Assembly: GCF_000299575.1 (NCBI RefSeq)
Contig: NZ_AMGO01000036.1
Span: 62,001 to 126,000 of the forward strand
Direction: 5' to 3'
Origin: Oceaniovalibus guishaninsula JLT2003
GTDB taxonomy: Bacteria > Pseudomonadota > Alphaproteobacteria > Rhodobacterales > Rhodobacteraceae
DNA length: 64,000 nt
Shown: in pieces, positions 35,122 through 50,322 of the stretch
Position numbering within the stretch: the stretch's first letter is position 1
How the letters are laid out: the number at the start of each line of letters is the position of its first letter
Notes under the pieces: model-generated
Database searches by the model: none
The model's input: the letters and a program-made list of their open reading frames with translations, nothing else
What the model was told of the DNA's origin: nothing
Translations under genes and position numbers: made by a program

Positions 35122-35198
<77 letters not shown>

Positions 35199-39462: not shown

Positions 39463-39545
39463 GCGCGGGTCGTAGCGGCGGCGCGGCGCGGTCTCAAGCC
39501 GAATCGCCTTGCAGCCGTGGGGGCGCGCGGCTAGCGTCGGACTAC

Positions 39546-39622
39546 CTCGGGGTGCCCTTGACGGGCTGAGATGCGATGCGAACCCGTAGAACCTGAACCG
39601 GTTAGGACCGGCGGAGGGAAGG
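39546..39622 (+). promoter_or_regulatory. TPP riboswitch (THI box)
   Basis: Core elements in order: GGGGTGCC, GGGCTGAGATGCG, AACCCGTAGAACCTGAACCGGTTAGGACCGGCGGAGGGAAGG in short segments. The CTGAGA and ACCTGAxCxGGTTA...CCGGCGGAGGGAA blocks are the hallmark pyrimidine- and pyrophosphate-sensor parts. It lies 44 bases before thiB, so it likely represses thiBPQ when thiamine pyrophosphate is plentiful, by sequestering the SD or terminating. Confidence 0.93.
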
Positions 39623-39665
39623 TCAGCCATTCCTCGGCCCCGACCCCGTCCGGCTTGGAGGAACG

Positions 39666-48880: not shown

Positions 48881-48956
48881 GAGCCGGTAGCTCAGTTGGT
48901 AGAGCAACTGACTTTTAATCAGTAGGTCCAGGGTTCGAGCCCCTGCCGGCTCACCA
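48881..48956 (+). tRNA. tRNA-Lys (anticodon UUU)
   Basis: A complete 76-base cloverleaf: acceptor GAGCCGG/CCGGCTC, D-arm TAGCTCAGTTGGTAGAGCA, anticodon stem ACTGA/TCAGT with loop CTTTTAA (anticodon TTT), T-arm with GGTTCGAGCCC, and encoded CCA. Confidence 0.97.
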
Positions 48957-49023: not shown

Positions 49024-49638
49024 ATGAAATTGCTTCCCGCCGTCGCGGCGATGGCGCTGATCGTGGTCGCGTCGAATGTTCTGGTGCAGTTCCTTTACGG
49101 TCAATGGCTGACCTGGGGGGCGTTCACCTATCCGCTGGCATTCCTCGTCACCGACCTGACCAACCGCCTGCACGGGCCGGCCGCCGCTCGCCGGGTGGTG
49201 ATGGCCGGGTTCGGCGCCGGACTGGTCTGTTCGGTGATCGGGACGCAGATCATCGGGCCCGAGGGCCCGCTGGTGACGGGGCGGATCGCGCTGGCCTCGG
49301 CCACGGCGTTTCTGGGCGCGCAGATGCTGGATGTGACACTATTCGACCGGCTGCGCGGCGGGCGCTGGTGGCGGGCGCCGCTGGTGTCGTCGCTGGTCGG
49401 ATCGGCGCTGGACACGGCGCTGTTTTTCAGCATTGCGTTCAGTGCCTTGCTGCCTTTCGGCGATGTCGCCTGGGCGAACGGGACGGTGCCGCTGCTGGGC
49501 CGGGGGCCGGACGCGCCGCTTTGGGTCAGCCTGGCGGTGGCGGATTGGGGGGTCAAACTGGCGCTGGCGGTGATCGCGCTGGTGCCTTTCCGCATGACGG
49601 TGGGGCGGCTGTCGGGCAGGCCGGTCGAAAGGCTTTGA
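49024..49638 (+). CDS. Queuosine precursor transporter (YhhQ/VUT family)
   Basis: A 204-residue inner-membrane protein with five to six helices. FLYGQWLTWGAFTYPLAFLVTDLTNR and the LASATAFLGAQMLDVTLFDRLR segment are typical of YhhQ, which imports preQ0/preQ1 or queuine for tRNA modification. SLVGSALDTALFF is the conserved central helix. The SD is weak. It is 67 bases downstream of tRNA-Lys. Confidence 0.88.
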   Translation: MKLLPAVAAMALIVVASNVLVQFLYGQWLTWGAFTYPLAFLVTDLTNRLHGPAAARRVVMAGFGAGLVCSVIGTQIIGPEGPLVTGRIALASATAFLGAQMLDVTLFDRLRGGRWWRAPLVSSLVGSALDTALFFSIAFSALLPFGDVAWANGTVPLLGRGPDAPLWVSLAVADWGVKLALAVIALVPFRMTVGRLSGRPVERL

Positions 49639-49697
49639 CTTATGCCGAATCTGTGGCAGGTTCGCGCTATCGGAAACAAGCGAAAGGAGGTGGTCCA

Positions 49698-49760
49698 GTG
49701 TCTAGTTTGATGTTGGAGATCGGTGTCGGAACAGTCGCGGGGAACCGTAAGCGGGGGTAA
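49698..49760 (+). CDS. Leader peptide, 20 aa
   Basis: GTG start directly after a near-full-length SD; the product reads (M)SSLMLEIGVGTVAGNRKRG. A GTG start behind so strong an SD is odd for such a short ORF and suggests a regulatory uORF or a real small protein. There is no run of one amino acid as in classical attenuators. It lies in the same direction as arfB, 140 bases ahead, with a terminator in between. Confidence 0.6.
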   Translation: MSSLMLEIGVGTVAGNRKRG

Positions 49761-49823
49761 CGCCCCGAAGTCGCTTTCGCGATTGGACCCATGTCCTAAC
49801 CGGGTCCATCTCCTGATCAATCG

Positions 49824-49850
49824 GGGGCCATCCTTCGGGGTGGCCCCTTT
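49824..49850 (+). terminator. Intrinsic terminator after the leader ORF
   Basis: GGGGCCATCC-TTCG-GGGTGGCCCC-TTT: a ten-base stem with one G-T pair, a stable TTCG loop and three T. It sits 63 bases after the leader stop and 53 bases before arfB. Confidence 0.85.
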
Positions 49851-49902: not shown

Positions 49903-50322
49903 ATGCTGCGCGTCACCGACACCATCGCGATCGAGGATTGGGAGCTGACCGAGCAGTTCGTCCATGCCGGCGGACCCGGCGGGCAGAACGTGAACAAGGT
50001 CGCCACCGCCGTCGAATTGCGGTTCGAGGCCGAGCGGTCGCCCAACCTGCCCGGCTTCGTGAAGGCGCGTCTGCGCAAGCTGGCTGGGCGGCGCTGGACC
50101 AAGGACGGGGCGCTGGTGATCCGCGTGACCGAGACGCGCCACCAGCAGCGCAACCGCGAGATCGCGCGCGAACGGCTGGCCGAGCTGGTGCGCGCGGCGA
50201 CTGTGCGTCCCAAGCGGCGGATTCCGACACGGCCCAGCGCGGGCGCCAGACGCCGCCGGCTGGACGAGAAGAAGGCGCGGGGGCAAGTCAAGGCGCTGCG
50301 CGGCGACGTGACGCCCGACTGA
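49903..50322 (+). CDS. arfB: Alternative ribosome-rescue factor ArfB (YaeJ), peptidyl-tRNA hydrolase
   Basis: A 139-residue codon-independent rescue factor that frees ribosomes stalled without a stop codon. The RF1-like domain has AGGPGGQNVNKVATAVEL with the GGQ. RVTETRHQQRNREIARERL and the basic C-terminal tail (RRLDEKKARG...) that enters the mRNA channel are present. The ATG at 49903 starts MLRVTDTIAIEDWEL. There is almost no SD, because the 40-bp element abuts the start; low or conditional translation is likely. Confidence 0.9.
   Translation: MLRVTDTIAIEDWELTEQFVHAGGPGGQNVNKVATAVELRFEAERSPNLPGFVKARLRKLAGRRWTKDGALVIRVTETRHQQRNREIARERLAELVRAATVRPKRRIPTRPSAGARRRRLDEKKARGQVKALRGDVTPD

What the first reader, a model, noticed from the sequence alone, without database searches (positions are those of the whole stretch)
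49635..49850. Leader RNA whose extreme SD can pair with an anti-SD in the same transcript
The SD at 49685-49696 (AGGAGGTGGTCC) can pair with 49803-49814 (GGTCCATCTCCT) over 12 positions: ten Watson-Crick pairs, one G-T pair and one mismatch. The 3' partner resembles the 16S rRNA tail itself. Part of it (49802-49808) can instead form a perfect hairpin with 49784-49790. The two structures exclude each other. A 20-codon ORF sits between and a TTCG terminator follows. Together this looks like a translational or transcriptional switch, or an RNA that titrates ribosomes. I do not know a described family with this layout. A link to arfB, the ribosome-rescue gene just after it, is attractive but only inferred.
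Basis: partly seen in the sequence, partly recalled or inferred. Interest (0 to 1): 0.75.

Follow-up and report, generated by a model that had tools for sequence, protein, structure and literature searches.

The report
Micro-ORF RNA that hides its start
This is a short bacterial RNA, apparently with its own promoter and found in many Alphaproteobacteria, that carries a tiny gene behind an unusually strong ribosome-binding site and a 3' segment able to fold back over it; it looks like a self-controlled small gene rather than a switch for the neighbouring ribosome-rescue gene.

Summary
In detail: the SD (49685-49696) pairs with 49803-49814, and the micro-ORF and TTCG terminator are there. The RNA is conserved: a covariance model built here hits 182 of 198 family genomes. 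In 148 family-type loci SD positions 1-7 can pair with the pre-terminator segment in 138-145, and 142 of 147 predicted folds contain the helix. Both exclusive pairings of the anti-SD, with the SD and with a local hairpin, beat partner permutation. The ORF is open in 148 of 148, with 18 codons in 135. It is a sub-threshold relative of Rfam RF01867, Caulobacter sRNA CC2171 (43 bits, cut-off 75). In other Alphaproteobacteria the pre-terminator element pairs with codons 2-5 instead of the SD. The arfB link is local synteny: 108 of 140 family loci with room, 0 of 113 others. Most likely this is a small mRNA or dual-function RNA whose start site is masked by its own 3' end. Function, translation and masking in cells are untested; ribosome sensing is the boldest reading left open.

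The parts
49635..49662 (+). Candidate promoter: TTGACT at 49635-49640 and, by inference, CAGGTT at 49657-49662 (16-nt spacer); it overlaps the 3' end of the yhhQ-like gene
   Evidence: Sequence. TTGA lies 46-51 nt before GAAAGG in 118 of 146 family-type loci but only 25 of 125 other-alpha loci. The sigma-70 consensus scan lists no promoter here.
49682..49698 (+). Extreme SD GAAAGGAGGTGGTCCAG, complementary to the 16S tail with one G-U (last base recalled, the rest)
   Evidence: Sequence; 16S tail in same-genus 16S genes; AAAGGAGGTGRNNC once in the assembly.
49698..49760 (+). Micro-ORF, GTG start, 20 codons plus TAA (family norm 18 codons, VSRVILERGVGTV...)
49732..49739 (+). P1 5' arm CAGTCGCG, overlapping the ORF
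   Evidence: Complement of 49778-49785; P1 has both-side changes in 7 of 10 pairs of A1.
49778..49785 (+). P1 3' arm CGCGATTG
49784..49790 (+). P3 5' arm TGGACCC, competitor of the SD for the anti-SD
   Evidence: Perfect complement of 49802-49808; cis pairing above permutation in relatives; weak column-wise support.
49795..49800 (+). CCTAAC before the anti-SD, conserved and outside the helices I modelled
   Evidence: A1 columns 156-160: C 44, T 44, A 39, A 44, C 44 of 46; column 155 C 35.
49803..49814 (+). In-cis anti-SD GGTCCATCTCCT
49823..49848 (+). Intrinsic terminator hairpin with TTCG loop, followed by TTC
   Evidence: Fold; not listed by the consensus scan, which asks for five T in eight.
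49024..49638 (+). Upstream neighbour: Vut_1 / yhhQ-like queuosine precursor transporter
   Evidence: TIGR00697 85.5 bits, cut-off 50.95; upstream in 131 of 141 family-type loci with room.
49903..50322 (+). Downstream neighbour: arfB
   Evidence: NCBIfam ArfB 176.6 bits, cut-off 100; adjacency counts.

Best explanation
A free-standing small RNA gene (about 180 nt, own promoter, own terminator) that is also a tiny mRNA. Its micro-ORF starts behind an SD complementary to most of the 16S tail. Once the 3' part is made, the segment just before the terminator folds back and masks the initiation site: the SD itself in Rhodobacteraceae, the first codons in other Alphaproteobacteria. In the Rhodobacteraceae version the same anti-SD can instead be held in a local hairpin, which leaves the SD open. 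So translation of the micro-ORF is probably self-limited, and ribosome binding and the closed fold exclude each other. Shown by comparison: a conserved RNA, a conserved ORF, conserved masking pairings. Inferred: the promoter, that masking lowers translation in the cell, that ribosomes open the fold, and that the open form or the peptide has a function.
For: ORF (148 loci): no stop in the first 17 codons of frame 0 in 148, against stops in 83 and 84 in the other frames; stop at codon 19 in 135, TGA, TAG and TAA all used; synonymous fraction of single-base codon differences 0.406 against 0.264 expected, other frames 0.277/0.221 and 0.260/0.211. Masking: SD positions 1-7 pairable in 138-145 of 148, position 8 as G-C 63, A-U 17, C-G 6; RNAalifold finds the SD helix unaided on A1; at least five SD bases paired to the 45 nt before the terminator in 142 of 147 MFEs; cis pairing above permutation for the SD (18.07 vs 17.57, 0 of 2000) and the hairpin (13.59 vs 12.11, 0 of 2000), not for the rival ORF partner (1444 of 2000 reach it). 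Other alphas: codons 2-5 with the pre-terminator segment 13.79 vs 10.60, 0 of 5000 over 92 distinct segments, and 12.04 vs 9.84, 0 of 5000, for the 60 without the CATTG type. Free-standing: TTGA at fixed distance in 118 of 146 family loci; downstream gene not constant. Spread: 182 of 198 family genomes at E<=0.01; 14 of 120 phylum genomes at E<=1e-4, all 14 in the window's class.
Against: The 148 loci were gathered by likeness to a 55-nt consensus without indels, which itself favours an open frame and an intact SD; three loci (L097, L102, L177) fell out. The partner was chosen as the best-scoring 11-mer before the terminator. Much of the SD pairing varies on one side only because the SD hardly varies; positions 8 to 11 pair in only 86, 33, 104 and 130 of 148. 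The permutation tests ignore kinship. On a YhhQ tree of 130 loci the paired changes at position 8 go the expected way, but too few lie on supported branches (median p 0.5). The SD duplex beats every ORF window in only 61 of 148 and the best of 20 shuffles in only 77 of 148. The window's open state does not form the proposed hairpin. Of 31 listed class genomes in the phylum draw, 17 had no R1 match at E<=1e-4. TTGA at promoter distance is seen in only 25 of 125 other-alpha loci. No expression, profiling or probing data for this genome. Passages of PMC4117421 say that intergenic ncRNAs of C. crescentus are not translated; whether that covers CC2171 was not visible.
Confidence: 0.6

Rival explanations
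1. Small protein-coding mRNA in which the 5'-3' helix only stabilises the RNA; the peptide is the product and masking is incidental.
For: Clade-specific conserved peptides (VSRVILERGVGTV..., VSHCHxPR...W.xAS, VSxxKRCHLAGIAR); synonymous excess.
Against: Peptide sequence and length differ between orders (14 to 35 codons among the loci kept, filter 10 to 40) while the SD block stays. The 3' element pairs with the initiation region by two different routes. Some codons are fixed at nucleotide level: AGA in 129 of 129 Arg at codon 3, ACA in 143 of 143 Thr at codon 12.
Confidence: 0.2
2. Structured non-coding sRNA, as Rfam files CC2171; the SD-like block is a 16S-tail-binding element and the ORF a by-product.
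For: Rfam type 'Gene; sRNA'; nucleotide-level conservation of codons 3 and 12.
Against: GTG in 147 and ATG in 1 at one place, 135 of 148 with the stop at codon 19 in three spellings, stops common in the other frames.
Confidence: 0.12
3. Leader that controls arfB by attenuation or translational coupling.
For: arfB lies downstream on the same strand within 700 nt in 113 of 148 family-type loci, 108 of the 140 with room.
Against: 27 of those 140 show no arfB in the stretch held and 5 have it 736 to 2860 nt off. Outside the family 0 of 113 loci with room have it downstream; one (L217) has it 179 nt upstream on the other strand. The terminator stands in both modelled states of the window RNA, so no antiterminator is seen.
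Confidence: 0.05
4. Type I toxin mRNA of the hok/aapA kind.
For: Same fold-back plan: SD masked by an anti-SD at the 3' end, with competing local hairpins (aapA3 and hok, passages of PMC6733600).
Against: Peptide not hydrophobic: mean GRAVY 0.2, longest nonpolar run at most 6 in 148 peptides. Present in 182 of 198 family genomes, with a single match in 156 and 2 to 4 matches in 26 (the scores of most extra matches were not shown). No antisense RNA was looked for.
Confidence: 0.03

Closest known systems
Rfam RF01867, CC2171 (Caulobacter sRNA)
   Same: Matches 49674-49847 end to end, E 5.3e-8; same block CAACAA..GAAAGGAGGTGRTCCAGTGTCT and a terminator at the end. R1 in turn matches all 40 other-alpha loci given to it at E<=1, 38 at E<=0.01; these 40 were picked from loci that already bear the SD block.
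   Different: 43 bits, under the 75-bit gathering score. Rfam files it as sRNA without an ORF. Its long-range pair is CAUUGUC/GACAAUG with the first codons, whereas in Rhodobacteraceae the SD is masked.
aapA/IsoA and hok mRNAs (type I toxin-antitoxin)
   Same: 5'-3' long-distance interaction in which an anti-SD masks the SD, with local hairpins competing (passages of PMC6733600).
   Different: No hydrophobic toxin peptide; near-universal in the family; no antitoxin RNA known; extreme SD.
rnTrpL/peTrpL of Sinorhizobium meliloti
   Same: A very short translated ORF in an alphaproteobacterial small RNA (passages of PMC10117765).
   Different: rnTrpL is the trp attenuator, tied to trpE, and leaderless; this RNA has an extended SD and no constant downstream gene.
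UdsC of Rhodobacter sphaeroides
   Same: A 67-nt sRNA ending in a terminator, cut by RNase E and RNase III from the 3' UTR of a hypothetical-protein mRNA (RSP_7527) and binding rpoHII mRNA (passages of PMC9779115 and PMC8625941). The terminator-proximal part of this RNA would be of like size.
   Different: Neither sequence nor neighbours of UdsC could be compared here, and its promoter is called RpoHII-dependent. Identity is neither shown nor excluded.
alphaR8 family (MmgR, SisA-D)
   Same: Alphaproteobacteria-wide RNA with an anti-SD signature (passages of PMC12559287).
   Different: Pairs with mRNAs in trans; no Rfam family other than RF01867 came near at this locus.

Membership tests
RF01867 CC2171 | Covariance-model score at or above the gathering cut-off (75 bits) | tested here: not met
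   43.0 bits, E 5.3e-8. In 385 class genomes 85 match at E<=0.001, 13 over the cut-off.
RF01867 CC2171 | Full-length match of the model, SD block to terminator | tested here: met
   Model positions 1-159 of 159, not cut off.
RF01867 CC2171 | Long-range helix CAUUGUC/GACAAUG between early ORF and pre-terminator | tested here: not met
   The window lacks both arms; SD:anti-SD takes the place.
hok/aapA type I toxin mRNA | SD masked by a 3'-terminal anti-SD in the full-length RNA | tested here: met
   In silico only.
hok/aapA type I toxin mRNA | Hydrophobic, membrane-acting peptide | tested here: not met
   GRAVY mean 0.2, longest nonpolar run at most 6 in 148 peptides; membrane action itself not testable.
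hok/aapA type I toxin mRNA | Antisense antitoxin RNA; activation by 3' processing | not testable with these tools
   Needs RNA-seq and processing assays.
Leader-peptide attenuator | Constant regulated gene downstream | tested here: not met
   arfB within 700 nt in 108 of 140 family-type loci with room, 0 of 113 others.
Leader-peptide attenuator | Terminator competes with an antiterminator | tested here: not met
   Terminator stays in the free and SD-open folds of the window RNA; one sequence modelled in this way.
UdsC (R. sphaeroides) | Same locus or sequence | not testable with these tools
   No UdsC sequence or neighbour gene in the passages seen.

The most novel reading that the evidence does not exclude
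The RNA is a built-in gauge of free 30S subunits. Its SD block, found once in the assembly and complementary to most of the 16S tail, competes with its own anti-SD for ribosomes. When 30S subunits are plentiful they hold the RNA open and free the CCUAAC-anti-SD arm to act on other mRNAs or to be cut off as a separate sRNA; when they are scarce the RNA closes and is silent. Two alphaproteobacterial lineages mask the start in different ways, which points to selection for the competition itself rather than for either sequence.
Probability: 0.15. Interest if true: 0.85.

Novelty: new variant of a known kind. Interest (0 to 1): 0.6.

Why it matters
A near-universal RNA of Rhodobacteraceae, related to an Rfam sRNA for which I found no described role, appears by comparison to carry a micro-ORF behind an extreme SD and to mask that SD with its own 3' end. 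If confirmed, a family filed as sRNA becomes a translated, self-masked RNA, and it offers a natural system in which ribosome binding and RNA folding compete directly, testable with a few point mutations.

Tried and rejected
ORF GGAGAT as the true partner of ATCTCC: attractive in the window (6 pairs) and in L016, but over A1 it shows no covariation (173 of 500 shuffles reach its score) and no cis excess (1444 of 2000); the SD duplex is stronger in 140 of 148. Rejected as the main pairing, though the window's SD-open MFE uses it.

arfB control: rejected on synteny. Type I toxin: rejected on peptide make-up and distribution. R. sphaeroides sRNAs: StsR (72 nt; passages) and Pos19 (219 nt, RpoE regulon; start of abstract in the listing) do not look alike; UdsC left open. 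P. denitrificans sRNA lists could not be mapped without the genome (passages). Peptide strings in the held literature: no biological hit in the four papers listed. Plasmid collection: no match. Micro-peptide in NCBIfam: none.

Tree test of position-8 co-change: underpowered. Rows dropped before counts: 154 family-type loci were found by a 55-nt likeness rule without indels and 6 duplicates removed, leaving 148 with the window included (by origin 108 family search, 3 class, 37 named). L097, L102 and L177 fell out under that rule; read by eye, L097 (2-nt shorter spacer) and L177 (TTG start) keep an 18-codon ORF; L102 is a contig end. 8 of 148 lacked a clean anchor; 141 entered (117 distinct 3' segments); 147 entered; 130 entered. 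The other-alpha set (125, 123 after de-duplication) excludes ORFs under 10 or over 40 codons, weak terminators and stretches under 220 nt, and held one misfiled family locus, L185, taken out. A1: 48 diverse sequences were selected from 146 and I left out L079 and L141. The output was cut, so not all named loci were read by eye.

Full report
1. What is there. Between a yhhQ-like transporter gene (49024-49638) and arfB (49903-50322) lies a compact unit: TTGACT at 49635-49640, a 5' end near 49670 (inferred), the SD GAAAGGAGGTGGTCCAG, a GTG-started 20-codon ORF (49698-49760), two helices, the anti-SD at 49803-49814 and a TTCG terminator at 49823-49848. The SD:anti-SD helix is in MFE and centroid of the free RNA.

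2. Chance. In isolation the 12-position match is reached by 13 of 5000 dinucleotide shuffles of 49701-49822 and by nine 12-mers of the window, itself included. That alone would not be enough; the case rests on relatives.

3. Relatives. Blastn of 49660-49856 hits 152 of 198 family genomes at E<=0.001; the model R1, built from 46 relatives, hits 182 of 198 at E<=0.01, 160 of 174 good ones, with a single match in 156 and 2 to 4 in 26. Rfam RF01867 matches the window at 43 bits, E 5.3e-8, under its cut-off of 75, and 85 of 385 class genomes at E<=0.001; of 14 named control genomes it rings only in Caulobacter vibrioides. In a draw of 120 phylum genomes R1 gives 14 matches at E<=1e-4, all in the window's class; 17 more class genomes listed there had none.

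4. The ORF. Over 148 family-type loci the start is GTG in 147 and ATG in 1; the frame is open for 17 codons in all 148, while the other frames have stops in 83 and 84; 135 stop at codon 19, with TGA, TAG and TAA all in use; single-base codon differences are synonymous in 0.406 (0.264 expected), against 0.277 (0.221) and 0.260 (0.211). The loci were gathered by likeness over a stretch that includes the first 13 codons, so openness there is partly built in; the common stop at codon 19 and the synonymous excess are less so. AGA at codon 3 and ACA at codon 12 are fixed beyond the amino acid, so the RNA or the codon is constrained too. In other orders an ORF stands at the same place behind the same SD, 14 to 35 codons among the loci kept, but the peptides are clade-specific.

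5. The masking helix. In the 148 loci positions 1-7 of GGAGGTG can pair with the best pre-terminator partner in 138 to 145; the partner varies almost only by changes that keep pairing (U 88 / C 56 opposite G5, A 118 / G 22 opposite U6); position 8 occurs as G-C 63, A-U 17 and C-G 6 and is unpaired in 62; position 9 is unpaired in 115. Loci first missed by the SD regex include variants in which the SD reads GGAGGTGC and the partner GCACCTCC. On A1 the SD helix has 83.4% of cells paired and P1 both-side changes in 7 of 10 pairs; sliding the partner drops the whole structure from 81.2% to 39-57%. RNAalifold finds the SD helix, P1 and the terminator unaided. The MFE holds the SD helix in 142 of 147.

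6. The switch. With 3' segments permuted among 117 distinct sequences, cis pairing is better than permuted for the SD (18.07 vs 17.57) and for the local hairpin (13.59 vs 12.11), each 0 of 2000; the ORF partner is not (1444 of 2000). The test ignores kinship. Column-wise support for the hairpin is weak (38 of 500 shuffles reach its covariation score). In the window RNA, opening SD and start costs about 10 kcal/mol (-80.1 to -69.9) and the predicted open form is not the proposed hairpin; with SD and start forced open in 147 loci, 123 pair at least four of the 38 pre-terminator bases within 60 nt upstream. A tree-aware test of position 8 points the right way without significance.

7. Outside the family. 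In 92 distinct other-alpha sequences the pre-terminator segment pairs with start +3 to +16 better than permuted (13.79 vs 10.60; 0 of 5000), also in the 60 without the commonest CATTG type (12.04 vs 9.84; 0 of 5000), in many spellings (CAUUGUC/GACAAUG, AUGAGAUU/AAUCUCAU, CAUGGUU/GACCAUG, GUGAGU/ACUCAC). The SD window shows no excess there (3845 of 5000 reach it); a later ORF window does (0 of 5000). So the constant is a 3' element that closes on the micro-ORF, mostly on its start; which part it covers differs by lineage.

8. Context. arfB lies within 700 nt downstream in 108 of 140 family-type loci with room, is absent from the stretch held in 27 and further off in 5; outside the family 0 of 113 have it downstream, and one has it upstream on the other strand. 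The yhhQ-like gene lies upstream in 131 of 141 and 0 of 118. In some other clades a DUF188-like or dnaX-like gene follows (my reading of the proteins, no family search). The RNA looks like a gene of its own.

9. What is known. Two held papers were seen to name CC2171 and two hold RF01867, the same two: the Rfam 15 paper lists it among families with one added covarying pair (passage), and a Mesorhizobium table predicts one copy (passage). Landt et al. 2008, its source, is recalled and was not seen. Listings showed no paper on a function or micro-ORF of this family; most were judged by title and start of abstract. The closest mechanism is the fold-back of aapA and hok mRNAs (passages). UdsC of R. 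sphaeroides, a processed 67-nt 3'-UTR sRNA, could be the same locus or not (passages).

10. Verdict. A real, conserved, probably self-masked micro-ORF RNA; a divergent relative of a known Rfam family; the cellular role is open.

Noticed in passing
L152, L213, L254, L256, L278, L299, L300 and similar: In Bradyrhizobium-like loci the micro-ORF is a nearly invariant VSxxKRCHLAGIAR of 14 codons, and in several its CTCGCTGG complements CCAGCGAG downstream; no literature hit for the peptide.
   Followed up: partly
L144, L271, L286: The same extreme SD precedes a 55-59 codon ORF with a secretion-signal-like start (e.g. MSHGAKPVAVLFGLAALLTAGVASADC...), as if the SD block served another small gene.
   Followed up: no
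L202: A contig titled Gemmatimonadota MAG carries the SD block, a 21-codon ORF and a possible terminator; misbinned, or a relative outside Alphaproteobacteria.
   Followed up: no
window 49795-49800; columns 155-160 of A1: CCUAAC before the anti-SD is almost invariant in the family yet outside the modelled helices; a candidate protein or RNA contact.
   Followed up: no
L060, L145, L173, L225 and family-type loci: A GCAGCC motif recurs: after the stop codon in Rhodobacteraceae (GGGCAGCCC), inside the ORF (coding EQP) in some other orders.
   Followed up: no
L340 (G201): A search for the 16S tail GGATCACCTCCTTTCT hits the complement of this RNA's SD, 16 of 16 bases.
   Followed up: partly
L185 of genome G185 family data: G185:C19 and G185:C41: Genome G185 has two strong copies of the RNA on different contigs (E 9.0e-39 and 1.6e-30); the second ends at a contig end.
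   Followed up: no
window 39538-39636: TPP riboswitch, 66 bits; tRNA genes at 48881-48953 (+) and 35125-35198 (-).
   Followed up: no
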